Source: Prauserella marina
GTDB taxonomy: Bacteria; Actinomycetota; Actinomycetes; Mycobacteriales; Pseudonocardiaceae
Reading direction: 5' to 3'
Length of the DNA stretch: 64,000 bases
Assembly (NCBI RefSeq): GCF_002240355.1
Contig: NZ_CP016353.1
Coordinates: forward strand, 1,476,501-1,540,500
Shown here: piece after piece, positions 3,309 through 37,949 of the stretch
Position numbering within the stretch: position 1 is the first letter of the stretch
Layout of the letters: each line of letters starts with the position of its first letter
Translations under genes and position numbers: made by a program
Notes under the pieces: model-generated
Database searches by the model: none
Seen by the model: the letters and a program-made list of their open reading frames with translations, nothing else
What the model was told of the DNA's origin: nothing

Positions 3309-3413
3309 GCGCTCAGGTCGTCGAGTTCCACGCCCAGGCGGGCGAGTTCTGCGCTCAGGTCACCGAGATCCACGCCCAGGTCACCGAGATCCGCGCCCAG
3401 GCGGGCGAGTTCC
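3309..3413 (-). repeat. 21-bp tandem repeat array A1 (5 units)
   Basis: Five consecutive 21-base units start at 3309, 3330, 3351, 3372 and 3393. Each has the form (G/A)CGC(T/C)CAGG followed by TCGTCGAGTTCC, TCACCGAGATCC or GGGCGAGTTCC. This is the reverse complement of the unit in arrays A2, B, C2 and D, so the array is oriented opposite to A2. No spacers interrupt it. Confidence 0.9.
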
Positions 3414-3564
3414 GCGAAGGGTGCCTGAGCGGCAGTCCAGACCGGCAGGTTCGGGTACCGCCTCGGGTCCCGCGCGGGCAGGGCGTTCCCGGCATAGCCG
3501 CCCGAGCGAAATCGCGGCCCGGTTATCTCACCAGTGCCCGACCTGACGATGGATTTGGTGTGCC

Positions 3565-3690
3565 GACCGTGCATCTCGGCCGCCGGAGTGCGGATCTCGG
3601 CGGGCCGGGCGGGGATCTCGACGGCCTGAGCGCAGATCTCGGTGACCTGAGTGCGGATCTCGACGTCCTGGACGGGGGACTCGCGGGCAC
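3565..3690 (+). repeat. 21-bp tandem repeat array A2 with terminal cap
   Basis: Units begin at 3565 (degenerate), 3586, 3607, 3628 and 3649, with core GGATCTCGGCG or GGATCTCGACGTCCT. The array closes with a different cap unit (3670-3690) containing GGGGACTCGCG. Bases 3635-3651 are the perfect 17-base reverse complement of 3354-3370 in array A1, so the two arrays can pair in single-stranded form. Confidence 0.88.
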
Positions 3691-3756
3691 CGTCCCCGGC
3701 ACCTGGATCTCGGCAACCGGTGCCCTTAGGGCGCCGCTTCTGCCAAGATGCCCGCT

Positions 3757-4530
3757 ATGACTGAGGACGGCTGGCCCGCGGGCGACCCGCGACGCTACTT
3801 CGACGCCCCGATCGATCCCGCCCACCTCAAGGAAAGCAGTCCGAACATCTACCGGCGGGTCATGTGGTTCGCCATCGGGATCGTCGTCGGCGGCGGGCTC
3901 ACCGCACTGGGCGTGTGGGCGAGCATCGACGGCAGGTGGTGGTCGGTGCTGCTCGGCGTCATCGCCATCATCGTCGGCCTCGGCCTGCTGGTCAGGGGCG
4001 TGCTCTCGGGCAGCGCGAGTAAACCGTTTCGCGGCGGTCAGCTCGTCCCCGGCCTCGTGGTCGAGCAGGCCGACGCGGCCGTCCAGATCCTCGTGCTCGG
4101 CGACACCTCGCGCGATCCCGCCGCCTCGCCCGCGTTCGCCTACCGGCTGGTGACCTTCACCGCGAGGGAGAACACGACCTTCGTACCGGGGCAGTGGGTG
4201 CCGTGCGTGATGCACGGCTTCGTCGCGCCAGCATGGAGCCCGCGCTGGTGGAGCTTCGAAGCCTCACCGGTGACCTGGGCGACCCCCGACGCCGAGATAC
4301 TCGACAGGGCGAACAAGGCCGTCCCGCAAGCCGAGTGGGAGCAACTGCTCGGCGGCGTCGACAAGGTCGCCGAGATCCGCCGACGGTGGACCCGCCTCGG
4401 CCGGATCGACTACGAGGACCTGCACGAATCGCTGCGAAGGCCGCCGACCCGGCTCGGTGTTCCCGTCGAATGGCAGGCCGACGGCAGGGCCAGGTTCGTC
4501 GGTTCGGTCGCGGCAGGCGTGGCGGGCTGA
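3757..4530 (+). CDS. Membrane protein of unknown function
   Basis: Unrecognised 257-residue protein. The first ~35 residues are polar. Two hydrophobic segments follow back to back (WFAIGIVVGGGLTALGVWA, then a WSVLLGVIAIIVGLGLLV region), separated by a short loop. The remaining ~170 residues are soluble and Trp-rich, with no catalytic motif I recognise. This gives a two-helix anchor and a C-terminal soluble domain. The start at 3757 (MTEDGW) is preferred; an in-frame ATG at 3748 is possible. It lies downstream of repeat array A2 and converges on the DinB-like gene with a 5-base gap. Confidence 0.7.
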   Translation: MTEDGWPAGDPRRYFDAPIDPAHLKESSPNIYRRVMWFAIGIVVGGGLTALGVWASIDGRWWSVLLGVIAIIVGLGLLVRGVLSGSASKPFRGGQLVPGLVVEQADAAVQILVLGDTSRDPAASPAFAYRLVTFTARENTTFVPGQWVPCVMHGFVAPAWSPRWWSFEASPVTWATPDAEILDRANKAVPQAEWEQLLGGVDKVAEIRRRWTRLGRIDYEDLHESLRRPPTRLGVPVEWQADGRARFVGSVAAGVAG

Positions 4531-4535
4531 CCCGG

Positions 4536-5135
4536 CTACATCGGAGACGTCGTTCCGTCCCATTCGGACAGTGGCGCGCAGTGCCACCACCACCTGGTCA
4601 GGCGTTCGCGGCCGGGCAGAGCCGTCCGCCCGTTGGCCCAGCGCAGCGCGGGCCATGACTCGGCGTCCGAGGGTGCCCACGGGAAGAGCCTGCGTAGCAC
4701 CGGCTCGGCGAGGTCGTCAGGCGGCGTGAACGGCACGCCGAGACCGCGGGCGACGTCCTCGGTGTGGATCAGTAGTTCGTCGCAGCCCATCGCGACGAAC
4801 CCCGACGCGTCGGCGAGACCGTACGGATGCCACCCCCTTGCCGAGGGGTCCGCGACCGTGACGGCTGCGCCGAGCAGCGCCGCCGCCGTCGTCACGGTGC
4901 GTACCAGCTGTCCGGGCTCACCGTCGGCACGCACCGTGGTATCCGTTGTGGACAGTTCGGCATCGCCTGCCGTGAAGTCGAACGCGTACCACAGCAGGGT
5001 GTTGCCGATGTGCGCGACGATCGAGCGCGCCGGCCATTCCATGTCAGGCGCCGTCGCCGACCAGTCGGCCGAAAGATGCTCACCGAGGAACGCGGTGCAG
5101 AACTCCGTGGTCGCGGTCAGTGCTTCCGGCTTCAT
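4536..5135 (-). CDS. DinB/maleylpyruvate-isomerase-like protein
   Basis: A 199-residue protein resembling the DinB-fold mycothiol-dependent maleylpyruvate isomerase N-terminal family: an early WSATAPDMEWPARSIVAHIG stretch with a candidate metal-binding His, and a later DELLIHTEDVARGLG helix. Members use mycothiol as cofactor or act as thiol S-transferases; the substrate cannot be inferred here. The start is the ATG whose first bases overlap the stop of the upstream symporter (ATGA), so it is probably translationally coupled as the last gene of the anmK-symporter operon. An upstream extension in the same frame lies inside the symporter gene and was rejected. Confidence 0.72.
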   Translation of the reverse strand: MKPEALTATTEFCTAFLGEHLSADWSATAPDMEWPARSIVAHIGNTLLWYAFDFTAGDAELSTTDTTVRADGEPGQLVRTVTTAAALLGAAVTVADPSARGWHPYGLADASGFVAMGCDELLIHTEDVARGLGVPFTPPDDLAEPVLRRLFPWAPSDAESWPALRWANGRTALPGRERLTRWWWHCAPLSEWDGTTSPM

Positions 5136-6646
5136 TTCATGCTGCTTCCTGCCGCTCTCGGGTCGGCGTTCTCCGGGTCGGGCTTGGGATGCCGCAAGGA
5201 GAGTAGCCCGCCCACGATCAGGGTCACCGCGACACCGAGCGGAACGAAGAGCGGGAAGGCGAGCGGAACCTGCTCCCCGTCTTCGGTGAACCTGATGAAC
5301 AGCGCGAACACCGCCGAAACCGCGATGGTGCACAGGAAAGCGATGATCCCGTCACCCTGCCTTGCCCGCTTGACGAGGATCCCGAGCAGGAACGCGCCGA
5401 GCAGCGCACCGTAGGTGTAGGACTGGATGGTCAGCCCGAGTTCGACGACCGGCTGGTCGGTGCTGGTGAACAGCGACGCGAAGATCACGAAGACGCCTGC
5501 CCAGATGAGTGTCCACAGCTTGGCCTGCTTGAGAATCGACTCGTCGGAAAGGGTGCGCTTGGTGAAGCGCTGGTAGATGTCGCTGATGGTCGATGTGGAC
5601 AGCGAGTTGAGCGACGAGGAGATCGTGCTCATGGCCGCCGCGAGAATTCCCGCGACGAGCAGTCCGGAAAGGCCGGGTGGCAACTGCTCGACGATGAAGG
5701 TGGGGAACAGCTCGTCGCCGGTGCTCATGCCCATCGACTCGGGGGAGGCTCCGTTGAAGAACGACCACAGCATCGTTCCGATGAACAGGAAGAGCGCGAA
5801 CTGGATGAATACGACGAAACCGCTGGCGATCACGGCCTTCTGACTGTCCTTGACGGTCCGGCAGGCCAGCAGCCGCTGAACCATGAGCTGGTCGGCACCG
5901 TGCGAGGCCATCGCGAACAGCGCGCCGCAGATCACGGCGGTGAAGAACGCGTACTGGTTGGTCACGACGTTGGACGTGAAGTCGAAGAACTGGAACTTGC
6001 CTTCGTCCGCCGCGTTCGACAGCCAGCCCTCCGGCAGCTTCCCCGCGAGCACGAAGACGGCGGCAATGGCGCCGAGAATGTAGATGCCCATCTGGATCAC
6101 GTCGACCCACACGACGGCGCGGATGCCACCGAGATACGTGTAGATGACGGAGATCAGGGCGATCGCCGCGACGATGAACCAGTAGGGCAGGTCGAGGCCG
6201 AACGCGCCGAACATGACCTTGACCGGGATGGCCGTGGCGAACAGCCGGACGCCGTCGGCGAGCAGCCGGGTGAGCAGGAACGTCACCGAAGCCGTTCCCT
6301 GCATGCCGTTTCCGAATCTCTTGCCGAGGAATCCGTAGGCGCTCACCAGGTTTCCCGCGTAGTAGCGGGGAAGCAGCACGAACGCGACGATCACGCGGCC
6401 GATGAGGTAGCCGACCGCGAGCTGCAAATAGGTGATGTTACCGAGGTAGGCGACGGTGGGAACGCTGATGACGGTGAGCGTCGACGTCTCGGTGGCCACG
6501 ACCGAGAACGTGACCGCCCACCACGGGATGTTCCTGCTGCCGACGAAATAGTCGGTCGACGATCGCTGCTTGCCGCCGAGCCATATCCCCAGCAGTGGCG
6601 TTCCCACCAGGAAGACGGCGACGATGGCGAGGTCGAATGCGCGCAT
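5132..6646 (-). CDS. Sodium:solute symporter (SSS family)
   Basis: A 504-residue polytopic membrane protein of the sodium/solute symporter family, with about 13 hydrophobic segments. Early family features are visible (GGKQRSSTDYFVGSRNIPWW, then SVVATETSTLTVISVP), and the central SSS region carries SHGADQLMVQRLLACR. It should couple sodium influx to uptake of a small solute. It starts 9 bases after the anmK stop, so the two are surely co-transcribed. Because anmK phosphorylates 1,6-anhydro-N-acetylmuramate, the likely cargo is a cell-wall-derived amino sugar or sialic-acid-like compound; this is inference from context. Confidence 0.9.
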   Translation of the reverse strand: MRAFDLAIVAVFLVGTPLLGIWLGGKQRSSTDYFVGSRNIPWWAVTFSVVATETSTLTVISVPTVAYLGNITYLQLAVGYLIGRVIVAFVLLPRYYAGNLVSAYGFLGKRFGNGMQGTASVTFLLTRLLADGVRLFATAIPVKVMFGAFGLDLPYWFIVAAIALISVIYTYLGGIRAVVWVDVIQMGIYILGAIAAVFVLAGKLPEGWLSNAADEGKFQFFDFTSNVVTNQYAFFTAVICGALFAMASHGADQLMVQRLLACRTVKDSQKAVIASGFVVFIQFALFLFIGTMLWSFFNGASPESMGMSTGDELFPTFIVEQLPPGLSGLLVAGILAAAMSTISSSLNSLSTSTISDIYQRFTKRTLSDESILKQAKLWTLIWAGVFVIFASLFTSTDQPVVELGLTIQSYTYGALLGAFLLGILVKRARQGDGIIAFLCTIAVSAVFALFIRFTEDGEQVPLAFPLFVPLGVAVTLIVGGLLSLRHPKPDPENADPRAAGSSMK

Positions 6647-6655
6647 GGCTATCTC

Positions 6656-7867
6656 CTACCGTGACTCGGAGGGGCTGGCTACCCGTAGCCGCCGGGGTGC
6701 GGCCGGTGGTCGTCCGGGAAGCACGAGTGGTGCCCTTCCTGGAGTGATGCTGCCGAGCGGCCGTGGTCCTCCCGCTCCGGTCGCGCCGGGCACGTTGCCT
6801 GGCAGGCCGTGCCAGGTGAGCCAGCCGAGCAGCGCGGTGAGGTATGCCTCTTTGGCGTCGGAGGGCAGGCCGTGTTCGTCGCTCGCGACGACGGTGATCC
6901 GGGCGCGGAGCGCGCGTACGAGCGCGGGATTGCGCAGTCCTCCGCCGGAGGCGACGACGGCGCGCACGCCGTGGTTCGCGCAGGCGGACGCGATCGTCGC
7001 CGCGGTGAGTTCGGTGAGGGTGGCGAGCAGGTCCTCGGCGGGGACCGGCGCGAACGCGGCGACGGCTTCGTCGAGGTAAGCGGCGTTGAAGTGTTCCTTC
7101 CCCGTCGACTTGGGTGGCAACCGTTCGTAGTAGGGGTCGGCGAGCAGGCGGTCCAGCAGCCCGGGGTGCACCGTGCCGCGTGCGGCGAGCGCTCCGTCGA
7201 CGTCGCTGTGCAAGCGCCCTCCGGTGAGGGTGGTGACCGCCGCGTCGAGCAGGGCGTTGCCAGGGCCGGTGTCGTAGGCGAACACGGTGCCGTCGCCATG
7301 CACGACGGTCAGGTTGGCGATGCCGCCGATGTTGAGCGCCCCTCGCGGTGCTCCGCCGGGCTCGGGCCGCAGCCACAGCGCGTCGAGGGTGCTCGCGAGC
7401 GGCGCGCCGTGACCGCCTGCCGCGACGTCGCGGGTCCGAAAGCCGGAGACGACCGGCAGCCCGGTGCGCTCGGCGATCCAGGCGGGCTCGCCGAGCTGGA
7501 GAGTGCCGAGCGCCGTGCCGTCCTCCACCCAGTGGTACAGCGTCTGGCCAAGCGACGCGATCAGGTCGGCGTGCCCGCCGGCGTGGTCCTCGATGCCGAG
7601 CAGGGCGGCTTCCGCGAACGCCTGCCCGACTCCCGTGTCGAGCTTGGTGAGCCGCTCGGCGGTGCACGCGCCGGGTGGCAGCGCCGCGAGCAGGTCGTCC
7701 CGCAGCGCGGGCGGATAGGGCACCTCACCGTGGCCGAGCGGGGTCAGCCGGAGTTCCCGGTTTTCACCGCCCTCGGCTCGCAGGTCCGCGACGGCGACGT
7801 CGACGCCGTCGACGGAGGTACCGGAGATGAGCCCGACGACTCGCAGGCTTCCGCTGGAATCCGCCAC
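6656..7867 (-). CDS. anmK: Anhydro-N-acetylmuramic acid kinase
   Basis: Converts 1,6-anhydro-N-acetylmuramate plus ATP to MurNAc-6-phosphate, the entry step for recycling cell-wall muramic acid in the cytosol. 403 residues, normal family size. Motifs: the N-terminal nucleotide-binding GLISGTSVDGVDVA (residues ~11-24), central SGFRTRDVAAGGHGAPLA, then LNIGGIANLTVVHGDG and AYDTGPGNALLDA. The start is a GTG with no clear Shine-Dalgarno, and a candidate promoter (TTGCGC, 17 bases, TAGACC) puts transcription start very near it, suggesting a leaderless message. A DasR-like operator overlaps the -10 region. It is the first gene of a three-gene operon. murQ and nagZ are not in the window. Confidence 0.93.
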   Translation of the reverse strand: MADSSGSLRVVGLISGTSVDGVDVAVADLRAEGGENRELRLTPLGHGEVPYPPALRDDLLAALPPGACTAERLTKLDTGVGQAFAEAALLGIEDHAGGHADLIASLGQTLYHWVEDGTALGTLQLGEPAWIAERTGLPVVSGFRTRDVAAGGHGAPLASTLDALWLRPEPGGAPRGALNIGGIANLTVVHGDGTVFAYDTGPGNALLDAAVTTLTGGRLHSDVDGALAARGTVHPGLLDRLLADPYYERLPPKSTGKEHFNAAYLDEAVAAFAPVPAEDLLATLTELTAATIASACANHGVRAVVASGGGLRNPALVRALRARITVVASDEHGLPSDAKEAYLTALLGWLTWHGLPGNVPGATGAGGPRPLGSITPGRAPLVLPGRPPAAPRRLRVASPSESR

Positions 7868-7870
7868 TGG

Positions 7871-7886
7871 AGTGGTCTAATCCACG
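7871..7886 (-). promoter_or_regulatory. DasR-like (dre) operator before anmK
   Basis: AGTGGTCTAATCCACG resembles the DasR-responsive element A(C/G)TGGTCTAGACCA(C/G)T: the left nine bases fit and CCAC is kept on the right. It sits immediately upstream of the anmK GTG and over the proposed -10. DasR is the GlcNAc-phosphate-responsive repressor of amino-sugar genes in actinobacteria, which suits an amino-sugar kinase. The match is imperfect. Confidence 0.5.
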
Positions 7887-8007
7887 GTGCGCCGCGGCGC
7901 AAGACATCAGGTGACATTTTCGCCAAAAGTACGCAGTCCAGGTTGAATGCTCACCGTCGGAGCAGGGGCGCCAGGGCGGGGCCCGGCGCGAATGCGAGGA
8001 TGGCCGG

Positions 8008-9417: not shown

Positions 9418-9423
9418 GCTGCC

Positions 9424-10194: not shown

Positions 10195-10219
10195 GCTGTC
10201 TCCTCTCTCGCCGCTCCCG

Positions 10220-10262
10220 TTGAGCTTCCGCGATGTAGAAACTATAGTCCGAGATGTAAAAC
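10220..10262 (+). promoter_or_regulatory. aceB promoter with two 21-bp-spaced GATGTA sites
   Basis: A -35-like TTGAGC (10220-10225) and -10 TATAGT (10243-10248) are separated by 17 bases. GATGTAGAAAC (10232-10242) and GATGTAAAAC (10253-10262) are direct repeats offset by 21 bases, two helical turns, bracketing the -10. ACTATAGT (10241-10248) is itself a palindrome. The layout suits repression by the divergent IclR protein. Confidence 0.6.
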
Positions 10263-10289
10263 AAGATGATCGTTATATGAGGTGTTCGC

Positions 10290-13096: not shown

Positions 13097-13167
13097 CCTA
13101 GCGGGTGTCGTTCTTCCCACTCCCGTGGCATCCGGAAATGCCGGGGTCGCGCCGTTATCCTGGCGAA

Positions 13168-13938: not shown

Positions 13939-13941
13939 CGC

Positions 13942-14760: not shown

Positions 14761-14799
14761 GTGCCGCCTCCGGTTCCGGGGTTCGAGTATCGCGTGCCT

Positions 14800-14883
14800 G
14801 AACGCGCATCTCGGCGTCCCGAGTGTGGAAGTCGATGTCCCGAGCGCGGATCTCGGCGTTCTGGTCGAGGGATTCGCGAGCAC
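14800..14883 (+). repeat. 21-bp tandem repeat array B with degenerate cap
   Basis: Three 21-base units at 14800, 14821 and 14842 with core GCGGATCTCGGCG or a variant, followed by a degenerate cap at 14863-14883 (AGGGATTCGCG in place of GGGGACTCGCG). It lies between divergent genes and stops one base before the operator of the SDR operon. Confidence 0.8.
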
Positions 14884-14884
14884 T

Positions 14885-23595: not shown

Positions 23596-23605
23596 CAGAT
23601 TTGTA

Positions 23606-28674: not shown

Positions 28675-28760
28675 TCCGGCCTGACGAACAGAACCAGCCC
28701 CGGGTGTGCCGATTGGCAGGCCCGGCGGTGAATCCTGCCCAACTCGCGCTGGAGGCCATC

Positions 28761-30194
28761 GTGGTGCAACCGCGCACGGACCGCGTACAGCAACCGGGGG
28801 AGCCCACCTCCGTCGACAGGTTCTTCCGCATCAGCCATCGCGGCAGCACGGTGGGGAGGGAGGTACGCGGCGGGCTGACGACGTTCGTCGCGATGTGCTA
28901 CATCGTGCTGCTCAATCCGTTGATCCTCAGCGCTTCCACCGACATCACGGGCCTGCGGCTGACGACGGAACAGGTCACGACGGCGACGGCGCTGGCCGCG
29001 GCCGTCACCACCGTCCTCATGGGACTCATCGGCAACGCGCCGCTCGCCGTCGCGGCGGGGCTGGGGGTCAACGGCATCGTCGCCTTCCAGCTCGCTCCCG
29101 CCATGACCTGGGGGCAGGCGTTCGGGCTCGTCGTACTCGAAGGACTGTGCATCGTCGCGCTGGCGATCTCGGGCGTGCGCGAGCGCATCATCAACGCCAT
29201 TCCCTCGGCGCTCAAAACCGGAATCACCGTCGGCATCGGGCTCTACATCGCGCTGGTGGGGCTGGTCAGCGCCGGGTTCGTCACCAGGACTCCCGACAAG
29301 GCGGACTCGACCGTTCCGGTGCGGATGGGCGTCGACGGTCACCTCACCGGCTGGCCGATCGTGGTGTTCTGTCTCGGGCTGCTGCTCATGGTGATCCTGG
29401 TGGCCAAGGCCGTTCCCGGCGCGGTGCTGATCTCCATCGGCGCGGCGACGTTGCTGGCCGTCGTGCTCAACAGCGTGTTCGACATCAGCGGCTGGGGTCT
29501 CGTCGAGCCGGCCGTGCCGACCCAGGTCGTGGCGAGCCCCGACTTCAGCCTGTTCGGCCAGATCGACCTGTTCGGTGGATTCGTCTCGGCAGGGGCGATG
29601 ACGGCGACGGTGTTCCTGTTCACGCTCGTGCTGTCCGGGTTCTTCGACGCGATGGGAACCATCACGAGCGTCGCGCAGGAAGCCGGGATCATGCGGGAAG
29701 GCAAGGTCGAGGGGATGGGCCGCATCCTGTTCGTCGACGGGCTCGGCGCGGTCGCGGGCGGGGTGAGCGGCTCGTCGCCGAACACGGTGTTCCTCGAATC
29801 GGCGGCGGGAGTCGGCGAGGGGGCGCGGACGGGGCTGGCCAGTGTGGTCACCGGAGGGTTGTTCGCGGCGACCCTGTTCCTGACGCCGATCGCCGCGATC
29901 GTGCCGGCGCAGGCGGCGGCGCCCGCGCTGGTGGTGATCGGCGGCATGATGATGGCCCAGTGCAGGCGGATACCGTGGCAGGACGCCGATGTCGTGCTGC
30001 CGGTGTTCCTGATCGCCGCGCTCATCCCGTTCACGTACTCGATCACCAACGGCATCGGGGCTGGGCTCATCGCCTACGTGGTCATCAAGCTGAGCAAGGG
30101 AAAGGCGAGCGAGGTCGGCTGGCTGCTAGGCGGGCTGGCCGTCGTGTTCGCGGCCTATTTCGGGGTCGAGGCCGTCAAGCTGGTGGTCACCTGA
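28761..30194 (+). CDS. NCS2-type purine permease (AzgA-like)
   Basis: A 477-residue polytopic permease of the AzgA-like branch of the nucleobase transporters, expected to import adenine, guanine or hypoxanthine with protons. Typical blocks: the RISHRGSTVGREVRGGLTTF start, CYIVLLNPLILSAS, APLAVAAGLGVNGIVAFQL, LSGFFDAMGTITSVAQEAG and GSSPNTVFLESAAGVGEGAR. About 12-14 membrane segments. Start 28761 is preferred because GGAGG sits 5 bases upstream; GTG 28764, and further-upstream starts to 28704, are in frame. Follows xdhA by 86 bases and precedes repeat arrays C1 and C2. Confidence 0.92.
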   Translation: MVQPRTDRVQQPGEPTSVDRFFRISHRGSTVGREVRGGLTTFVAMCYIVLLNPLILSASTDITGLRLTTEQVTTATALAAAVTTVLMGLIGNAPLAVAAGLGVNGIVAFQLAPAMTWGQAFGLVVLEGLCIVALAISGVRERIINAIPSALKTGITVGIGLYIALVGLVSAGFVTRTPDKADSTVPVRMGVDGHLTGWPIVVFCLGLLLMVILVAKAVPGAVLISIGAATLLAVVLNSVFDISGWGLVEPAVPTQVVASPDFSLFGQIDLFGGFVSAGAMTATVFLFTLVLSGFFDAMGTITSVAQEAGIMREGKVEGMGRILFVDGLGAVAGGVSGSSPNTVFLESAAGVGEGARTGLASVVTGGLFAATLFLTPIAAIVPAQAAAPALVVIGGMMMAQCRRIPWQDADVVLPVFLIAALIPFTYSITNGIGAGLIAYVVIKLSKGKASEVGWLLGGLAVVFAAYFGVEAVKLVVT

Positions 30195-30225
30195 CCCCGC
30201 GTGCCCGTGGGTGCCAGCGCGGTGC

Positions 30226-30429
30226 CCATACGCGAGTCCCCAGCTCAAGCCGTCGAGTTCGGCGCTCAGGTCGGCGAGTTCCGCGCTCAGGCTGTCGAGT
30301 TCCGCGCTCAGGCTGTCGAGTTCCGTGCTCAGGTCGTCGAGTTCCGCGCTCAGGACGGCGAGTTCCGTGCCCAAGCCGGCGAGTTCCGCGCCCAGGTCGG
30401 CGAGTTCCGCATTCAGGTCCTGAGAGTTC
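30226..30429 (-). repeat. 21-bp tandem repeat array C1 (8-9 units plus cap)
   Basis: The longest array in the window: eight exact 21-base units from 30240 to 30407, of the type CGCGCTCAGG(T/C) followed by CGTCGAGTTC, then one degenerate 22-base unit to 30429. Read on the minus strand the array ends in a cap with GGGGACTCGCG (30231-30241), the same cap as in A2, C2 and D. Two neighbouring units (30282 and 30303) are identical. Confidence 0.92.
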
Positions 30430-30558
30430 CGGACAGCTCGGGCATGGCTCGCCGAATGAGCGGTGCCAACGGGCCAGTGACCGACTCACCGACCGCAGCG
30501 TGGGAACAGCCTTCCGGCGAGGCGCGCGTCACGCACCAAGGGCGAACTCACGCGTACC

Positions 30559-30684
30559 AACGCGGATGTCGGTGACCCGACTGCGGATGTCGGTGACCTG
30601 ACTGCGGAACTCAGGCATCCTGAGTGCGGATCTCGCGCGCCTGGACGGGGAACTCGGCGGCCTGGACGGGGGACTCGCGCGCAC
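30559..30684 (+). repeat. 21-bp tandem repeat array C2 with cap
   Basis: Units start at 30559, 30580, 30601 (22 bases), 30623, 30644 and 30665. The early units have GCGGATGTCGGTGACC and the later ones GCGGATCTCGCG. The last unit is the cap with GGGGACTCGCG (30669-30679), and the penultimate unit is itself cap-like. Orientation is opposite to C1, giving a head-to-head inverted pair. Confidence 0.87.
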
Positions 30685-30746
30685 GAGGGCCCGGGCCCCG
30701 CCAGCGCCCGGCGCGGGCCAGCGCCCGGCGCGGGCGGGCGCGCGGC

Positions 30747-32438
30747 TCAGGGGACCGGCTCGAACTCGGCCACGTTGTCCAGCGCGGTTCCCATGGCGGC
30801 GTTGGCCTCCCGCTCGATCATCACCTCGACCAGCACGGGACGACTGGTGCGGTCGGCTTCCTTCCTCGCCCACTCCAGCGCGCCCCTGATGCCGTCGGGT
30901 TCGGTGACCCTGGTTCCCGAACAGCCGTACGCCTCCATGATCTTGACGTTGTCGGTGCCGTGCTCGTCGTAGTGCAGGTCGACCTCGAAGTTCATGTCAT
31001 AGCCCAGTTCGGCCTGTCTGATCAGCCCCAGGTACGTGTTGTTCAGCATGACGAGCACGAACGGCACGTCGTACTGGGCCGCCACCGCCAGTTCCTCGAC
31101 GAGGAACTGGAACGAGTAGTCACCGACGACGCCGACGACCTCGGCGCCCGGCTTCGCCTTCTTGACCCCGATCGCGGCGGGAATCTCCCAGCCGAGCGGC
31201 CCGGCCTGGCCACAGACCTGGTAGTGCCGTGGCTTGTGCGCGCGCTGGAACTGACCCGACCAGATCTGGTAGAGCCCGATCGCGGTCACGAAGTAGGTGT
31301 CCTCGCCGTAGAATTCGTTGATCTCCTTGAACACCCTCGGCGCCTTGATGGGTACGGCGTCGAAGTCCTCGGTGCGGTCCAGCGTCGCGCGCAGTTCGCC
31401 GATGCGCTCGACCCATTCCACCGGCCTCACCACCTGCCTTCGCGCGGCGGCGGCGCCGAGCGCGTCGAGGAATGCCGCACTGTCGGACACCACACCGAGG
31501 TCGGGCCCGAACACCCTCCCGATCTGGGTGGGCTCGATGTCGACGTGGATGAACCTGCGATCGCCGCGGTAGACCGAAAGGTCGCCGGTGTGCCGGTCAC
31601 CGAACCTGGCACCGACGGCGAGCACCAGATCCGATTCGAGGAACGCCGCGTTGGCCCAGCGTTGTGAGGTCTGGATACCGGCCATGCCCGCGAAAAGCCG
31701 GTGGTCTTCCGGGAAGACCCCCTTGCCCATGAGCGTCACCCCGACCGGCACGCCGAGGGTTTCGGCGACGTTCAGCAGCGACTCGCCCGCGTTGCCGAGC
31801 GTGACGCCTCCCCCGGCGAGGATCAGCGGGCGCCGCGCGGACAGCAGCAGGTCGAGCGCCCGCTCCACTCTCGCCGGCGCGGGCTGTGGCACGGCGACCG
31901 GGAGCCTGGCGTCGATGTCGGCGTCCCACTCGATGAGCTGCTTCTGCACGTCGAGCGGCAGGTCGATGAGCACGGGCCCGGGCCGTCCGCTGCGCGCGAT
32001 CCGGAACGCTTCACGGAAGATCCACGGTGCCTGCGCGGCTTCCTTGACCTGCACCGCCCACTTGGTGACGGGCTTGGCGATCTCGACGATGTCGACGGCC
32101 TGAAACGCCTCCTGATGGAGCTTTGTCGACACGGCTTGGCCCGTGATGCACAGGATGGGGATCGAGTCGGCCTGCGCGGTGTAGAGGCCGGTGATCATGT
32201 TGGTTCCGGCCGGACCTGACGTCCCGATGGCGACGCCGACGTTGCCCGTCGTGCGGGCCCATCCGTCGGCCATGTGGGTCGCGCCCTCCTCGTGCCGCAC
32301 GACGAGGTGTTCGATTCCGCTTCCTCGCAACGCCGAGTAGAGCGGCAGAATCGCGGCGCCAGGGCAGCCGAACGCGGTGTCGACTCCCTCGGAGACGAGT
32401 ACGTCGACGACGGCCTTCATCGCAGGAACCTTTGCCAT
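30747..32438 (-). CDS. gcl: Glyoxylate carboligase
   Basis: Thiamine-diphosphate enzyme joining two glyoxylates to tartronate semialdehyde and CO2. 563 residues, slightly shorter than the E. coli enzyme. Motifs: FGCPGAAILPLYSALRGS, TSGPAGTNMITGLYTAQADS, SIPILCITGQAVSTKLHQEA, FQAVDIVEIAKPVTKW, CGQAGPLGWEIPAAIGV, the ThDP motif GVVGDYSFQFLVEELAVAAQ with LNNTYLGLIRQ, and the Gcl-type C-terminus AAMGTALDNVAEFE. Residue 50 is Glu (VRHEEGATH) where E. coli Gcl has Val51, the residue that sets Gcl apart from other ThDP enzymes. Last gene of hyi-glxR-gcl, with GAAGGGAA before its ATG. Confidence 0.92.
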   Translation of the reverse strand: MAKVPAMKAVVDVLVSEGVDTAFGCPGAAILPLYSALRGSGIEHLVVRHEEGATHMADGWARTTGNVGVAIGTSGPAGTNMITGLYTAQADSIPILCITGQAVSTKLHQEAFQAVDIVEIAKPVTKWAVQVKEAAQAPWIFREAFRIARSGRPGPVLIDLPLDVQKQLIEWDADIDARLPVAVPQPAPARVERALDLLLSARRPLILAGGGVTLGNAGESLLNVAETLGVPVGVTLMGKGVFPEDHRLFAGMAGIQTSQRWANAAFLESDLVLAVGARFGDRHTGDLSVYRGDRRFIHVDIEPTQIGRVFGPDLGVVSDSAAFLDALGAAAARRQVVRPVEWVERIGELRATLDRTEDFDAVPIKAPRVFKEINEFYGEDTYFVTAIGLYQIWSGQFQRAHKPRHYQVCGQAGPLGWEIPAAIGVKKAKPGAEVVGVVGDYSFQFLVEELAVAAQYDVPFVLVMLNNTYLGLIRQAELGYDMNFEVDLHYDEHGTDNVKIMEAYGCSGTRVTEPDGIRGALEWARKEADRTSRPVLVEVMIEREANAAMGTALDNVAEFEPVP

Positions 32439-32452
32439 GACTGACGTTCCCT

Positions 32453-33334
32453 TCAGTCCACACCGGATAATTGTTCGGTGACCTTGAGAAGTGCCGAGTG
32501 ATCGAGCGAGCCGTGACCCATTGCCTTCGCCGACGCGACGAGCTGGGCCACGAGTCCCGTCATGGGTAGTGAGACACCGGCTTGCCGGGCGGCGGCGGTC
32601 GCGATGCCCATGTCCTTGTGGTGCAGGTCGATCCGGAATCCCGGAGCGAATTGCCGCGCCACCATGGTGGCGCGTTTGAGGTCGAGGATGCGGTTGGCGG
32701 CGAGACCTCCGGCCAGCACGTCGAGTCCGGTCGCCGCGTCCACTCCGGACTGTTCCATCAGGACGATCGCCTCGCCGACCAGGGCGTAGATACCGCCGAC
32801 GACGAGCTGGTTGGCCGCCTTGACGACCTGTCCGGCTCCGTGCGGGCCGACGTGCACGACGGTGGTTCCCATGAGCCGCAACACCGGCATGGCCGCCGCG
32901 ACGTCCGCGTCGTCGCCTCCGACCATGATGGACAGTGCGGCCTCACGCGCTCCGGTTTGTCCTCCCGAGACGGGAGCGTCGATCACCCGGACACCCTTGT
33001 GCTTGGCGGCTGCGGCAAGCTCGATCGAGGTCTCCGGCCGGATGGTGCTCATGTCGATGAGCAGTGCTTCCTTCCGCGCGGTCGCCAGCACTCCGCCTTC
33101 GCCGAGTACGACCTGCTCGACCTGCGGATGGTCGGGAAGCATCGTGATGACGACGTCGGCGCCCTCGACCGCCTCGGCGACGGACGAGGCCGCGATTCCG
33201 CCGTCCGCGACGAGCGTGTCCAGTGCCTCCGAGGCGACGTCGTAGCCGGTGACCCGATGTCCCGCGGCGGCGAGATGGCCCGCCATCGGCGATCCCATGA
33301 TGCCGAGGCCGATGAATCCGATGGTGCTCGTCAT
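32453..33334 (-). CDS. glxR: Tartronate semialdehyde reductase
   Basis: NAD(P)H-dependent 2-hydroxy-3-oxopropionate reductase, 293 residues, turning the Gcl product into glycerate. Motifs: N-terminal dinucleotide site IGFIGLGIMGSPMAGHLAAA, substrate-binding DAPVSGGQTGAREAALSIMV, catalytic Lys in GQVVKAANQLVVGGIYALV, and C-terminal FRIDLHHKDMGIATAAARQ. The start overlaps the hyi stop (ATGA) with a GGAGGG site upstream. It is 14 bases before gcl. 3-Hydroxyisobutyrate dehydrogenases share the fold, but the operon settles the role. Confidence 0.93.
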   Translation of the reverse strand: MTSTIGFIGLGIMGSPMAGHLAAAGHRVTGYDVASEALDTLVADGGIAASSVAEAVEGADVVITMLPDHPQVEQVVLGEGGVLATARKEALLIDMSTIRPETSIELAAAAKHKGVRVIDAPVSGGQTGAREAALSIMVGGDDADVAAAMPVLRLMGTTVVHVGPHGAGQVVKAANQLVVGGIYALVGEAIVLMEQSGVDAATGLDVLAGGLAANRILDLKRATMVARQFAPGFRIDLHHKDMGIATAAARQAGVSLPMTGLVAQLVASAKAMGHGSLDHSALLKVTEQLSGVD

Positions 33335-34143
33335 ACGGCTGCCCTCCTTGCGCGCGGCAGCCAGGAAAGCGAAGCCTCGCTGCCGGTGGTCGGCTGGTAT
33401 TCCAGTCCCGCGTAGCCGGTGTAACCGGCTTCCTGCAACGCGCCGAGATATCCGTCGATGTCGAGTTCGCCCGAGCCGGGTTCGTGCCGCCCTGGTACGT
33501 CGGCGAACTGCACGTGCCCGATCCTCGCCGTGTGCTCGGCGATGACGGCGGCGAGGTCGTCGCCGTTGGTGGCGAGGTGATAGAGGTCGGCGAGCAGGGT
33601 GAGCTCGGGCCTGCCGAGCTTGTCCATCACGGCGAGCGCGTCGGCCGCCGTGCGCAGTGGGTAGCGGTCGGCGCCGGAAAGCGGTTCGAGCACGAGCTTG
33701 GCGCCGATGGCGGCGGCCTTGCCCGCGAGCAGGTCGAGGTTGGCCAGCGCCGTCTCGTCCTGCGCGGCGGGGTCGAGGCCGTCGATCCGGTTGCCGTACA
33801 GGGCGTTGAAGGTGCGGCAGCCGAGCCGCCGCGCGATGTCGATCGCGACATCGGCGCTGTCGGCGAGTTCGCTCTCCCTGCCCGGCCACGACACGAGCCC
33901 CCGGTCTCCGCCAGGCATGTCGCCCGCGAAGAAGTTGAGCCCGGCGAGCGCGACTCCGGCGTCGTCGACCGCGGTGACGAAGGCGCCGACCTCGGCATCG
34001 GAGGGGACGGCTTCGGTGAACGGCCACCAGAATTCGACGGCCGTGAAGCCGGCCGCTCGCGCCGCTTCCGGCCGCTTCGGCAACGGCAGCTCGGTGAACA
34101 GCATGGACAGGTTGATGTCGTAGCGCAGGGTGTGTTCCGCCAT
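33331..34143 (-). CDS. hyi: Hydroxypyruvate isomerase
   Basis: A 270-residue TIM-barrel sugar-phosphate-isomerase-like enzyme interconverting hydroxypyruvate and tartronate semialdehyde. Motifs: LRYDINLSMLFTELPLPKRP, FTAVEFWWPF, LNFFAGDMPGGDRGLVSWPG, FNALYGNRIDGL, LVLEPLSGADRYPL (metal Glu), LLADLYHLATNGDDL, IGHVQFADVPGRHEPGSGEL and YAGLEYQPTTG. It heads the hyi-glxR-gcl operon and is divergent from the HTH regulator gene across 64 bases carrying an inverted repeat. Glycerate kinase, the next step after GlxR, is not in the window. Confidence 0.93.
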   Translation of the reverse strand: MAEHTLRYDINLSMLFTELPLPKRPEAARAAGFTAVEFWWPFTEAVPSDAEVGAFVTAVDDAGVALAGLNFFAGDMPGGDRGLVSWPGRESELADSADVAIDIARRLGCRTFNALYGNRIDGLDPAAQDETALANLDLLAGKAAAIGAKLVLEPLSGADRYPLRTAADALAVMDKLGRPELTLLADLYHLATNGDDLAAVIAEHTARIGHVQFADVPGRHEPGSGELDIDGYLGALQEAGYTGYAGLEYQPTTGSEASLSWLPRARRAAV

Positions 34144-34177
34144 GGCTCCGTGCTTCTCGTCTCGGCGTCGCTCAAAA

Positions 34178-34207
34178 TTTCGTAATGTGGAAGTACTTTT
34201 TCGTACT
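34178..34207. promoter_or_regulatory. Candidate operator between hyi and the HTH gene
   Basis: AGTAC, six bases, GTACT (34192-34207) is a perfect inverted repeat immediately before the ATG of the HTH gene. TTTCGTA occurs at 34178 and again at 34199, 21 bases apart. The region is AT-rich compared with its surroundings and is the only regulatory space for the hyi operon. Confidence 0.5.
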
Positions 34208-34768
34208 ATGACAGTAGCGAGCGCGTGGTGGGGTCGTCAACGGTTCGGTTCCGGCGCTTGGCGGGATACCGTGGCCGTCGTGGAGCTGGAAGCGGAGTTC
34301 ACGAGCGAGCCGTTTCGCGGTGAGGGCGAGCCGCCCCCGCATGCCGCGCTGGCAAAGGAGGCCGCGCGGAACGCGGGCCTGACCATCGACTTCGGGCCGC
34401 TGGGTACCTCGGCACGCGGGGACGCCGACGCGCTGCTCGCCGCGCTGCCCTCGATCGCGAGAGCGGCCATTGAAGGAGGGGCGAGCAGGCTGACCCTGCG
34501 CATCGCGCCGGTCGGCGAACGTGAGCGGGGCGAGCAGGGTGAGCGGGGCGAGAAGGGCACGGCGCCCGATGTCCTCGACCGCATCGTGCGGGACGTCGAG
34601 ACCGAACTCGGCGGCCCGCTCGGCGAACTGGACCGCGAAGGAAAGCAAAGGGCGGTGCGGCTGCTGGAGGAACGCGGAGCCTTCCAGCTCAGAAAGGCCG
34701 TCGCCACCGTGGCCGAAGCCCTCGGCGTCACCAGGTTCACCGTCTACAACTACCTGAATCGCGAATAG
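34208..34768 (+). CDS. HTH regulator with DauR/YheO-type C-terminus
   Basis: A 186-residue protein whose last ~28 residues (FQLRKAVATVAEALGVTRFT, then VYNYLNRE) form the helix-turn-helix seen at the C-terminus of DauR/YheO-like regulators. The N-terminal ~110 residues lack the usual PAS-like YheO domain. They include GLTIDFGPLGTSARGDADAL and a charged GER/GEQGERGEKG linker. It lies between hyi and uraD, suggesting a regulator of urate or glyoxylate genes. The start is uncertain: ATG 34208 has no ribosome site and could be leaderless; GTG 34271 is an in-frame alternative. Confidence 0.72.
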   Translation: MTVASAWWGRQRFGSGAWRDTVAVVELEAEFTSEPFRGEGEPPPHAALAKEAARNAGLTIDFGPLGTSARGDADALLAALPSIARAAIEGGASRLTLRIAPVGERERGEQGERGEKGTAPDVLDRIVRDVETELGGPLGELDREGKQRAVRLLEERGAFQLRKAVATVAEALGVTRFTVYNYLNRE

Positions 34769-34783
34769 CTCAGCACATCGAAT

Positions 34784-34823
34784 TCAACAAAATGTTGACG
34801 GCCCGCGTTCGCCGCCTTAGCTT
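34784..34823 (+). promoter_or_regulatory. uraD promoter with palindromic operator
   Basis: TCAACA, AAA, TGTTGA (34784-34798) is a perfect 15-base inverted repeat. It overlaps the -35 TTGACG (34795-34800); the -10 TAGCTT (34818-34823) follows a 17-base spacer. Transcription would start at or just before the uraD ATG (34831), so the message has little or no leader. A repressor on this site would block the uraD-uraH-uricase operon. Confidence 0.68.
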
Positions 34824-34830
34824 TTCCTGA

Positions 34831-35304
34831 ATGACCGAACTCAGCATGGCCGAGTTCAACTCCGCCGATTCCCGTGAGCTTCGCGAGACATTGACCGGAT
34901 GCCTCGCCGTGCCACGCTGGGCGGAGCGGGTTCTCGCGGGACGGCCCTACCCGGACAAGGCAGCGCTGCTGGCGGCTGCTGACCTTGTACTCCAACCGGA
35001 CGAAATTCATGCCGCGATGGCCGCGCATCCCCGCATCGGGGAGAAACCGGCAAGCGGAGCGGCGAACACCGAACAGTCCGGTGTGGACGAATCGGACGCG
35101 AAGCTGTTCCGGGAGGCCAACATCGAGTACGAGAACCGGTTCGGACATGTTTTCCTGGTCCGCGCGAGCGGGCGTGGCGGCTCCGAACTGCTGGCGTTGC
35201 TGCGAGCGAGAATGGCCAACGATCCCGAAACCGAACTCGCCGTCGCGGGTGAGGAACTGATCAAGATCGCCCTGCTGCGACTGGAAAAGGCGGTAGCCGG
35301 ATGA
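34831..35304 (+). CDS. uraD: OHCU decarboxylase
   Basis: Decarboxylates 2-oxo-4-hydroxy-4-carboxy-5-ureidoimidazoline to S-allantoin, the third step after uricase. 157 residues, normal size. Motifs: EFNSADSRELRETLTGCLAV, AAHPRIGEKP (catalytic His region), NTEQSGVDESDA, ANIEYENRFGHVFLVRASGR and ALLRARMANDPETELAVAGE. First gene of uraD-uraH-uricase, overlapping uraH by four bases (ATGA). Transcription likely starts at the promoter just upstream. Confidence 0.94.
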   Translation: MTELSMAEFNSADSRELRETLTGCLAVPRWAERVLAGRPYPDKAALLAAADLVLQPDEIHAAMAAHPRIGEKPASGAANTEQSGVDESDAKLFREANIEYENRFGHVFLVRASGRGGSELLALLRARMANDPETELAVAGEELIKIALLRLEKAVAG

Positions 35305-35618
35305 GCCTGGTGACCACACACGTCCTCGACACGGCGGCGGGCAGGCCCGCGGCCGGAATCCCGGTGCGCCTGCTCCAGCGGGACCAGCGGGAACTGGCGG
35401 CCGGGACCACCGACGAGGACGGCCGGATCGGCGACCTCGGTCCTGACACCCTGCCTCCCGGCGTGTACCGGCTGGTGTTCGACACGGCGGACTATCTCGG
35501 CCCCGGCGCGTTCTTTCCCGAGATCACCGTCACCTTCCGCATCGCCGATTCCCAAGCACACCACCACGTTCCGGTTCTGCTGAGCCCGTTCTCCTACTCC
35601 ACCTACCGAGGGAGCTGA
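35301..35618 (+). CDS. uraH: 5-Hydroxyisourate hydrolase
   Basis: Transthyretin-like enzyme hydrolysing 5-hydroxyisourate to OHCU. 105 residues. Family signatures at both ends: LVTTHVLDTAAGRPAAGIPV at the N-terminus and the C-terminal HHHVPVLLSPFSYSTYRGS, which contributes the active-site His and the YRGS tail. Translationally coupled to uraD and followed five bases later by uricase, so the three successive urate-to-allantoin enzymes form one operon. Confidence 0.96.
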   Translation: MSLVTTHVLDTAAGRPAAGIPVRLLQRDQRELAAGTTDEDGRIGDLGPDTLPPGVYRLVFDTADYLGPGAFFPEITVTFRIADSQAHHHVPVLLSPFSYSTYRGS

Positions 35619-35623
35619 TCCGC

Positions 35624-36517
35624 GTGGGCATCACACTGGGGCCCAATCAGTACGGTAAGGCCGAGGTCCGGCTCGTCACGGTCGAACGGGAAGGGCCGGT
35701 GCACCACATCAAGGATCTCACCGTGTCGACGGCGCTGAGAGGAAACCTCGCGGCGACCCACCTCACCGGTGACAACCGCGACGTCGTCGCCACCGACACG
35801 CAGAAGAACACGATCTTCGCCTTCGCCAAGCGACAGCCGGTCGGTGACATCGAGGATTTCGCACTCAGGCTCGGCAGGCATTTCGTCAGCTCGTTTGGTC
35901 AGATCACCGGGGCCCGCGTGCTCATCGAGGAGCACGGCTGGCGAAGGATCGAGGTGGGCGGAACTCCGCACGACCACGCCTTTTCTCGCTCAGGGGAGGA
36001 AAAACGCACCACGGCCGTCACAGTGGACGGTGACCAGGAGTGGGTCGTTTCGGGCCTGGCCGATCTCGTGGTGCTCAAATCGACGGGGTCGGAATTCCAC
36101 GGCTTTCCCCGCGACGAGTACACGACGCTCGCCGAGACCGACGACCGGATACTGGCCACCGCGGTGACGGCACGCTGGCGTTATCGCGAAGGGGAAACCG
36201 GCGGCTGGTCGCGAGCCCACGCGACGGCGAGGAGCGCGCTGCTGGAGACCTTCGCCCGCAAGCACAGCCTTTCGCTGCAACAGACCCTGTACGCCATGGG
36301 AGGCGCGGTGATCGAGGCGGTGCCCGCGATCGCGGAGGTCAGACTTTCGTTGCCCAACAAGCATCATTTCCTCGTCGACCTGAGCCCTTTCGGGCTCGGC
36401 AACGACAACGAGGTGTTCCACGCGGCCGACCGTCCATACGGGCTGATCGAGGGAACCGTGCTGAGTGACGACGCGCCCGACCCCGGTCTCGCCTGGCACA
36501 CTCTGCCTGCCTTCTGA
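35624..36517 (+). CDS. Urate oxidase (uricase)
   Basis: Cofactor-free oxidase converting urate and O2 to 5-hydroxyisourate and peroxide. 297 residues from GTG. Motifs: the NQYGKAEVRLVTVERE start, DNRDVVATDTQKNTIFAFAK (catalytic Thr/Lys region), LVVLKSTGSEFHGFPRDEYT, TAVTARWRYREG, SLQQTLYAMGGAVIEAVPAI, and the C-terminal LPNKHHFLVDLSPFGLGNDN. Last of the uraD-uraH-uricase operon and directly followed by the urate/xanthine permease gene after 18 bases. Symbols differ between organisms (uox, pucL), so none is given. Confidence 0.96.
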   Translation: MGITLGPNQYGKAEVRLVTVEREGPVHHIKDLTVSTALRGNLAATHLTGDNRDVVATDTQKNTIFAFAKRQPVGDIEDFALRLGRHFVSSFGQITGARVLIEEHGWRRIEVGGTPHDHAFSRSGEEKRTTAVTVDGDQEWVVSGLADLVVLKSTGSEFHGFPRDEYTTLAETDDRILATAVTARWRYREGETGGWSRAHATARSALLETFARKHSLSLQQTLYAMGGAVIEAVPAIAEVRLSLPNKHHFLVDLSPFGLGNDNEVFHAADRPYGLIEGTVLSDDAPDPGLAWHTLPAF

Positions 36518-36535
36518 GGAGATCGGTGGTGTCTC

Positions 36536-37852
36536 ATGCATCCCGTTGACACGAAACCGCCACTGCCGCAGCTCCTCGCGGGTGGCCTGCAACATGTCGC
36601 CGCGATGTACGCGGGGGTCGTCGCACCGCCGCTGATCATCGGCCAGGCGGTGGGACTCGACGCCGGTCAGCTCAGCCTGCTGATCAGCGCGAGCCTGTTC
36701 ACGGCTGGGCTGGCGACCCTGCTTCAGACGCTCGGGGCGTGGCGGTTCGGCGCGCGGCTCCCGCTCGTCAACGGCGTCACCTTCGCCGCCGTCGCTCCCA
36801 TACTGGCCATTGTGGAGCAACACGGGACCGGTAACGGTCTCGGCGTCGTCTACGGCGCGACGCTCGTCGGCGGAGCGCTCGTCGTGCTCGCCGCACCGTT
36901 TTTCTCCCGGCTGACCCGGTTCTTCCCTCCCATCGTCACCGGAACCGTCATCACGCTGATCGGCCTTTCGCTTCTCCCGGTCGCGGTCACGTGGATTTCC
37001 GATCAGCAAGCCTCCGCGAACGGGGAAGGGTTGCTGCTGGCCGCGATCACGCTCGCTGCGGTGCTGGCCTGCAACCGGTTCCTTCGTGGATTCTGGAGCA
37101 GCGTCGCGTTGTTGCTCGGGCTCGTGCTCGGCACGCTCGTCGCCTGGCCGCTCGGTGCCGTCGATACCTCGACGCTCGACGGCGCGCCCGCGTTCGGCAT
37201 CACGACCCCGTTCCACTTCGGAACGCCGGTGCTGGACATCGCCGCGATCGTGTCGATGGCGATCGTGATGCTCGTCGTCATGGCGGAGAGTACAGCGGAC
37301 ATGCTCGCGCTCGGCGAGATCGTCGACCGGCCGACGAGCGAACGCACACTGGCCGACGGCTTGCGTGCCGACGGGTTCGCCACCGCGCTGGCGACCGTGT
37401 TCGGTGGCTTCGCGGCGACGGCGTTCGCGCAGAACGTCGGACTCGTCGCCATGACGAGGGTGGTGAGCCGCTACGTCGTCGCCATGAGCGGCCTGATTCT
37501 GGTGCTGCTCGGGCTTTTCCCTGTCACCGGCGGGGTCGTCGCGCTCATCCCGGCGCCCGTGCTCGGTGGAGCGGGACTCGTGTTGTTCGGCAGCGTCGCG
37601 GTGGCCGGGATCCGGACCCTCGGCAAGGTGTCGTTCGCCAGCCCCGCCAACGTCACCATCGTCGCCGCCGCACTGGGCATCGGGCTCATTCCCATCGCGG
37701 CGCCCGAGTTCTACGCCGGTTTTCCCTCGGCGGTCAGGACGGTGCTCGACTCGGGAATCAGCGCGGGCTGCATCGCGGCGGTGCTGCTGAACGTGATCTT
37801 CGGCGAGCGGGCGAAGGCGGCGGCACCCGCCGCCGACCGGGAAGGGGTGTGA
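36536..37852 (+). CDS. NCS2 nucleobase symporter (urate/xanthine type)
   Basis: A 438-residue proton symporter of the NAT/NCS2 family, about 14 membrane segments. Motifs: GGLQHVAAMYAGVVAPPLII, GARLPLVNGVTFAAVAPI, VMAESTADMLALGEIVDR (NAT substrate region), FAATAFAQNVGLVAMTRVVS and PVLGGAGLVLFGSVAVAG. The AQNVG and MAE blocks fit the xanthine/urate branch, and the position after uricase supports urate or xanthine import. The ATG start is 18 bases past the uricase stop. Downstream lies repeat array D. Confidence 0.94.
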   Translation: MHPVDTKPPLPQLLAGGLQHVAAMYAGVVAPPLIIGQAVGLDAGQLSLLISASLFTAGLATLLQTLGAWRFGARLPLVNGVTFAAVAPILAIVEQHGTGNGLGVVYGATLVGGALVVLAAPFFSRLTRFFPPIVTGTVITLIGLSLLPVAVTWISDQQASANGEGLLLAAITLAAVLACNRFLRGFWSSVALLLGLVLGTLVAWPLGAVDTSTLDGAPAFGITTPFHFGTPVLDIAAIVSMAIVMLVVMAESTADMLALGEIVDRPTSERTLADGLRADGFATALATVFGGFAATAFAQNVGLVAMTRVVSRYVVAMSGLILVLLGLFPVTGGVVALIPAPVLGGAGLVLFGSVAVAGIRTLGKVSFASPANVTIVAAALGIGLIPIAAPEFYAGFPSAVRTVLDSGISAGCIAAVLLNVIFGERAKAAAPAADREGV

Positions 37853-37886
37853 GTCCGTGGCACGGTTCGGTGGCCGGTGTTGCCCT

Positions 37887-37949
37887 GAGTGCGGATTTCG
37901 CCGTCGTGAGTGCGGATCTCGGCGTCCTGGACGGGGGACTCGCGGGGGA
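37887..37949 (+). repeat. 21-bp tandem repeat array D (2 units plus cap)
   Basis: The shortest array. Two units (37887 and 37908) have cores GCGGATTTCGCCGTCGT and GCGGATCTCGGCGTCCT. A cap at 37929-37949 contains GGGGACTCGCG. It sits between the permease stop and allB, and the cap runs into the purine-rich ribosome-binding region of allB. Confidence 0.88.

What the first reader, a model, noticed from the sequence alone, without database searches (positions are those of the whole stretch)
3309..37949. Dispersed family of 21-bp tandem repeat arrays with a recurring cap unit
Seen: six arrays at four intergenic loci (3.3, 3.6, 14.8, 30.2, 30.6 and 37.9 kb). Units are 21 bases, core (in + orientation) GGATCTCGGCGTCCT, tandem, with no spacers. 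Arrays A2, C1, C2 and D each end in a cap unit with GGGGACTCGCG; B ends in a degenerate version; A1 shows no clear cap. Arrays have 2 to 9 units and none lies within a called gene. A repeat of two helical turns plus a recurring cap resembles neither CRISPR nor REP elements. It could be a minisatellite-like interspersed element, a phased DNA-binding array or an RNA element. I do not recognise a named family.
Basis: seen in the sequence. Interest (0 to 1): 0.8.

Follow-up and report, generated by a model that had tools for sequence, protein, structure and literature searches.

The report
Interspersed 21-bp repeats at gene ends
An actinobacterium carries many small arrays of a 21-letter DNA repeat, often at the ends of genes and often in mirror-image pairs; related genera share the repeat, which may help to end transcripts.

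Summary
All six arrays exist, lie outside called genes, have a 21-bp period, and four carry the exact cap. They belong to a genome-wide family: 686 core matches against 16 for the reversed pattern; 149 caps against 2.

A1/A2 and C1/C2 are inverted pairs. In 1.264 Mb, 48 loci include 17 '-+' pairs, no '+-' pair and 30 single arrays. Caps face outward: of 45 facing a gene 3' end, 18 lie 1-15 nt from it; of 21 facing a 5' end, none lies within 1-42 nt. 23 of 48 loci lie between convergent genes, against 208 of 1176 junctions. The cap is the array unit of relatives, kept at the outer end while inner units differ by species.

Paired arms fold strongly (mean z -7.2, 17 pairs); 23 single arms do not. 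Best reading: a Pseudonocardiaceae family of REP-like palindromes with tandemly expanded arms that act as, or replace, 3'-end hairpins. Function is inferred. One unit base follows the replication strand, unexplained.

The parts
3296..3421 (-). Array A1: five detected units plus a degenerate outer (cap) unit that starts right after the stop codon of the SMC-like gene (26-3295); left arm of pair A
3422..3563 (.). Spacer of pair A
3564..3689 (+). Array A2: five units plus cap; right arm of pair A; next gene called at 3757 (DUF3239)
14799..14882 (+). Array B: three units plus degenerate cap, single arm between divergent genes (Exo_endo_phos, minus; short-chain dehydrogenase, plus)
30227..30437 (-). 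Array C1: nine detected units, cap unit at the left (outer) end after the Xan_ur_permease gene (28728-30194); left arm of pair C
30438..30556 (.). Spacer of pair C
30557..30683 (+). Array C2: units plus cap; right arm of pair C; convergent TPP-enzyme gene (30747-32420, minus) follows
37886..37948 (+). Array D: two units plus cap, single arm between a second Xan_ur_permease gene (36536-37852) and an amidohydrolase gene (37961-39352)

Best explanation
A high-copy intergenic repeat family of part of the Pseudonocardiaceae. Its simplest form is a palindrome of two 21-bp halves directly after a gene. In this genus each half has been expanded by tandem duplication into an array, giving [minus array]-spacer-[plus array] with the conserved 'cap' units outward, near the gene ends. 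Transcribed from either side, a complete pair can fold into one long hairpin. The most likely role is a bidirectional 3'-end structure (terminator, transcription barrier or mRNA-end protector) between convergent genes, interchangeable with another repeat palindrome that fills the same place in congeners. Single-arm arrays would be partial or decayed elements. Shown: family, inverted layout, placement, fold potential of pairs, species-specific inner units. Inferred: termination or insulation, growth by slippage or unequal recombination, decay of single arms.
For: 17 '-+' pairs and no '+-' pair among 48 loci; 23 of 48 loci between convergent genes against 208 of 1176 junctions and 21,255 of 137,415 intergenic bases. 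18 of 45 caps that face a gene 3' end lie 1-15 nt from it, and none of 21 that face a 5' end lies within 1-42 nt. 17 pairs fold with mean z -7.25, 65% of the left arm paired with the right arm. Minimal 42-bp palindrome after a stop codon in G147 (L286). At the ortholog of C, G084 and G053 have a different long palindrome just after the stop codon; a pattern from that second family matches 207 and 216 times in G053 and G084, 25 in G014 and 0 here, and in L347 the two caps flank a member of it.
Against: 30 of 48 loci have one arm only (three of the 48 loci lie wholly inside genes and look like chance), and 23 single arms have no fold excess (mean z -0.08). Arms of one locus are no more alike than arms of different loci (0.671 against 0.667), so pairing is not visibly maintained locus by locus. 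31 other convergent gaps also fold (mean z -4.1), so hairpins are not special to the arrays. 8 of 48 loci lie between divergent genes. L290 (G145) shows the opposite order, + then -. Only 1 of 7 own loci in the stretch aligned to G014 has an array there. No RNA data.
Confidence: 0.5

Rival explanations
1. Selfish or neutral minisatellite: units spread and homogenise by recombination and slippage and survive where nothing is harmed (gene 3' ends, spaces upstream of promoters). No host function; the hairpin is a by-product.
For: Rapid species-specific change of inner units; 1 of 7 loci shared with G014; adjacent units of one arm are the most alike (0.723); many single arms without fold.
Against: Strict '-+' order, 17 to 0; caps close to gene 3' ends; conserved outer unit across genera. 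Some of this could follow from a palindromic ancestor plus loss of spare DNA.
Confidence: 0.3
2. DNA-binding array: a protein (nucleoid, barrier or segregation protein) binds GAG-N7-CTC half-sites every two helical turns.
For: 237 of 277 spacings are 21 bp; the CTCG core is nearly invariant while flanking bases vary; single arms could bind too.
Against: No candidate protein was searched for or found; does not explain the outer/inner gradient or closeness to stop codons.
Confidence: 0.1
3. Non-autonomous mobile element whose ends are the caps, with tandem recombinase-binding sites as arms, moved by an enzyme in trans.
For: High copy number, inverted ends, poor positional conservation, and a replication-strand-linked variant, as insertion into single-stranded DNA might give.
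Against: No Y1 transposase (PF01797) in 4 of 4 genus genomes, while the control rings in 5 of 14 named genomes. Unit number varies between arms. Target-site duplications and other transposase families were not tested.
Confidence: 0.08

Closest known systems
REP elements and BIMEs
   Same: High copy, extragenic, inverted arrangement, species-specific, suggested role in termination (abstract of PMC2817692)
   Different: 21-bp tandem arrays as arms with a conserved outer unit; no PF01797 transposase in the genus
MIRU/VNTR minisatellites of mycobacteria (recalled)
   Same: Dispersed intergenic tandem repeats of an actinobacterium
   Different: Inverted pairs, 21-bp period, cap at gene ends; strain variation not tested here
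Bidirectional terminators made of inverted short repeats, such as DNA uptake sequence pairs
   Same: Closely spaced inverted repeats after genes that form a hairpin; the DUS case is mentioned in passages of PMC2267715
   Different: Arms here are multi-unit arrays, many loci have one arm, T tract not tested, no known link to DNA uptake
Second palindrome family (GAAGGCCACCTTCACTGCGTTCAACG...) of congeners
   Same: Same place at the ortholog of C; high copy in G053 and G084
   Different: One long palindrome, no tandem arms in the copies read; no match in the window genome

Membership tests
REP/BIME moved by RAYT | High-copy extragenic palindromic repeats, often in inverted pairs | tested here: met
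   only paired loci are palindromic (17 of 48)
REP/BIME moved by RAYT | Cognate Y1 (RAYT) transposase gene in the genome | tested here: not met
   PF01797 in 0 of 4 genus genomes
CRISPR | Repeats separated by unique spacers | tested here: not met
   Contiguous units, 21-bp spacing in 237 of 277
Minisatellite / MIRU-VNTR | Dispersed tandem arrays of one related unit | tested here: met
Minisatellite / MIRU-VNTR | Copy number varies between strains of one species | not tested
   No second strain of the species was compared
Bidirectional hairpin terminator | Stable hairpin at gene 3' ends | tested here: inconclusive
   Met for 17 pairs, not for 23 single arms
Bidirectional hairpin terminator | Transcripts end there | not testable with these tools
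   Needs RNA 3'-end data
Known RNA family (Rfam 15) | Match at or above gathering score in the window | tested here: not met
   0 matches

The most novel reading that the evidence does not exclude
A new kind of element: a palindrome whose two arms grow in 21-bp steps while the outermost unit is kept, so that each arm is a layered record (conserved outside, lineage-specific inside), and whose units change by a replication-strand-specific process, so that a unit's sequence hints at which replication strand its array lies on. It spreads and homogenises without a known transposase, for example by strand-specific annealing or template switching at replication forks.
Probability: 0.15. Interest if true: 0.78.

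Novelty: new variant of a known kind. Interest (0 to 1): 0.55.

Why it matters
If right, several genera of one actinobacterial family carry a fast-evolving repeat at many gene ends for which I found no description in the searches made, and which shares its niche with a second palindrome family. It would offer natural material for studying transcription termination in GC-rich bacteria and concerted evolution of dispersed repeats without a known transposase. The replication-strand-linked variant makes a direct test of fork-linked repeat exchange possible. Two arrays coincide with the ends of one local inversion, so the repeats may also help to rearrange chromosomes.

Tried and rejected
Coding repeat (heptad peptide): conserved positions show no clean codon pattern (mean entropy by phase 1.21, 1.01, 0.79), spacings of 19, 20 and 22 also occur, and arrays lie between genes on both strands. 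Not favoured.

One small hairpin per unit (GAG/CTC): not favoured as the conserved feature. Position 4 is A in 37 of 139 and 37 of 128 units opposite a nearly constant C, and positions 5 and 11 do not covary (Fisher p 0.62 and 0.56).

Nested insertion of the palindrome into its own centre: predicts rank-matched similarity of the two arms; not seen (0.673 and 0.678 by rank against 0.671 for all left-right pairs).

RAYT/IS200-type mobilisation: no PF01797 in the genus.

A loose consensus array caller picked up many chance pairs (arrays called 124, 118, 391; reversed-sequence controls 29, 27, 50). I use no number from it; its intergenic subset points the same way for convergent gaps in C55 and the own region, less so in C22 (4 of 24).

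G014:C22 proved not syntenic with the sampled own region, so a wider breakpoint test was not possible.

A matching strand bias in another genus (G077, list, cut off at 2.85 Mb) was looked at by eye only and is not claimed.

Literature (full-text searches of open PMC papers): 0 papers; 5; 4; 0; 66 with two or more terms, 10 listed; 80, 15 listed; sequence strings; 8, none on this family by title and abstract; 7. No listing described this family. I opened PMC2817692 (abstract and outline) and passages of PMC2267715, nothing else. Most subscription journals are not held, so this is weak evidence of absence.
Full report
WHAT IS THERE. The six arrays are present where described. In array sense the unit is (T/C)GAG(C/T)GCGGA(T/A)CTCG plus a variable tail of about six bases; the cap unit is TGGACGGGGGACTCGCG plus a few bases. 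The core gives 45 window hits with up to 3 mismatches against a shuffled mean of 5.96. A1 and A2 point in opposite directions, as do C1 and C2, caps outward; B and D are single.

THE GENOME. The window is G000:C1:1476501-1540500 of a 6.99 Mb genome in two contigs. C1 starts with open reading frames that I read by eye as dnaA, dnaN and recF (no family search was run on them). GC skew is mostly positive in the pieces up to 3.2 Mb (two 3-kb pieces are near zero) and mostly negative from 3.49 Mb (one piece at 3.78 Mb is positive), so I place the terminus near 3.4 Mb. Nearest named relatives by one permease: Prauserella muralis 82%, Qaidamihabitans albus 81%. No call named the species. The core with up to one mismatch occurs 686 times against 16 for the reversed pattern; the longer cap 149 times against 2.

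ANATOMY IN 1.264 Mb. I joined the window with C1:1540501-2740500 and called genes with my own codon-usage script (1177 genes, density 0.89). Neighbouring unit hits are 21 bp apart in 237 of 277 cases. Kept arrays (two or more units, best unit with at most two mismatches) number 66 in 48 loci: 17 '-+' pairs, one '++', no '+-', 30 single (arrays under 600 bp apart were merged, and lone one-unit hits were dropped before this count). 41 of 48 loci do not overlap a called gene; three lie wholly inside genes and look like chance. 23 of 48 lie between convergent genes, 17 between codirectional and 8 between divergent genes; convergent junctions are 208 of 1176 and hold 21,255 of 137,415 intergenic bases. 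After extension of the arrays, 45 of 66 caps face a gene 3' end and 21 a 5' end; 18 of the 45 end 1-15 nt from the gene end, and none of the 21 comes within 1-42 nt. Three distances in each list are negative, probably arrays in or overlapping called genes.

THE CAP. Among 63 arrays with three or more units, cap-like units are 31 of 63 at the outermost position, 16 of 63 next, 9 of 63 third, 1 of 63 at the innermost. So about half of the arrays have no clear cap. In congener G014 many arrays consist of the cap sequence, with inner units drifting away: 15 of 22 scored arrays are closer to the cap in the outer half, 5 in the inner half (Wilcoxon p 0.036; at least one of the 22 rows looks like a coding repeat and the trimming overshoots several array ends; two more stretches were set aside as not of the family). 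In loci of other genera, fetched because they hold the cap, the outer unit is again GGGGGACTCGCG or close to it in many, and inner units differ by genus. I therefore read the cap as the conserved outer copy of an ancestral unit.

DISTRIBUTION. The window species' own unit (TGAGYGCGGATCTCG, exact) occurs 98 times here and once in each of 15 of the other 149 sampled family genomes, none of them congeners. The ancestral unit (GAGYGGGGRACTCGCG, up to one mismatch) reaches 30 or more in 15 of 150 family genomes from 7 of 46 genera (highest: G053 336, G014 303, G077 274, G129 233, G044 191), patchily even within genera; controls in those 15 are 4 or fewer. It is 4 or fewer in each of the 245 other genomes of a class-wide sample that held no other member of the family.

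MINIMAL FORM AND REPLACEMENT. In G147 a perfect 42-bp palindrome of two 21-bp halves follows a stop codon (L286), and L287 has two units per arm. Against a fixed layout, L290 (G145) has + then -. At the ortholog of C, G084 and G053 have a different long palindrome just after the stop codon, and G014 shows neither. A pattern from that second family matches 207 times in G053, 216 in G084, 25 in G014 and 0 times here, reversed control 0 (both arms of one palindrome can count). In L347 (G020) caps of the first family flank a member of the second. Of 7 own loci in the stretch aligned to G014:C55, only A has an array pair there.

FOLDING. The 17 pairs fold with mean z -7.25 against dinucleotide shuffles (range -2.1 to -12.4); on average 65% of the left arm pairs with the right arm. 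23 single arrays with three or more units average -0.08, and 31 convergent gaps without arrays average -4.1, 13 of them below -4. Of 13 single-arm convergent gaps under 900 nt, three hold another hairpin candidate beside the array (mononucleotide shuffles). Arms of one locus are not more alike than arms of different loci (0.671 against 0.667); adjacent units of one arm are (0.723). Hairpin potential thus follows from family sequence and layout, not from visible upkeep at each locus.

REPLICATION-STRAND SIGNAL. At unit position 11, '+' arrays of the sampled right half have T 119, A 18; '-' arrays A 82, T 45. By array majority: 31 T, 0 A, 1 tie against 9 T, 18 A, 7 ties (p 1e-8). In the complete list of exact GAGYGCGGAACTCG in the genome, strands are 8 plus and 32 minus before 3.42 Mb, 25 plus and 5 minus after it (p 1.5e-7; as 54 arrays 7/25 and 17/5, p 8e-5). 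Against a general rule, exact TGAGCGCGGATCTCG shows no such link (8/6 and 6/6, p 1): the A form is confined, the T form is not. Further loci agree on the left half (minus T 66, A 17; plus A 56, T 35) and less on the right (plus T 43, A 8; minus A 33, T 32), though many were picked by these motifs. T-over-A skew is 0.03 in other intergenic DNA and 0.12 in array zones. I have no tested cause. Fork-linked template switching at imperfect palindromes is a recalled candidate; one search listed papers on it and none was opened.

REARRANGEMENT. Relative to G014 and G053, the segment of about 30.7-37.8 kb is inverted with respect to the permease; its ends here fall at arrays C and D (the G084 piece was too short to tell). 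In G014 the junction between C55:104369 and 105157 holds a member of the second palindrome family. This is one case and no proof that arrays recombine.

KNOWN KINDS. It works most like REP/BIME repeats or inverted-repeat terminators. The RAYT test fails, and the termination test needs RNA. I rate it a new variant of a known kind.

Noticed in passing
L210 and L211 just after the permease stop codon; genome-wide in G053 and G084, fewer in G014: A second high-copy palindrome family (GAAGGCCACCTTCACTGCGTTCAACG and its mirror) with 207, 216 and 25 pattern matches in G053, G084 and G014 and none in the window genome.
   Followed up: partly
window 30736-37822: Segment inverted relative to G014 and G053, bounded here by arrays C and D; both breakpoints follow Xan_ur_permease genes.
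   Followed up: partly
G000:C1:2064536-2064743 and 2066557-2066889: Two array pairs about 2 kb apart share nearly identical inner units and spacer flanks but differ outside, as if one copied the other.
   Followed up: no
G000:C2 (134 kb), L216:2217-3518: The second contig carries an FtsK-type translocase gene similar to ones on actinomycete plasmids; its first 40 kb shows three isolated unit-like matches.
   Followed up: no
G000:C1:1826794-1826851 and neighbourhood: A single-arm array lies beside a separate 22-bp perfect stem hairpin in the same convergent gap.
   Followed up: no
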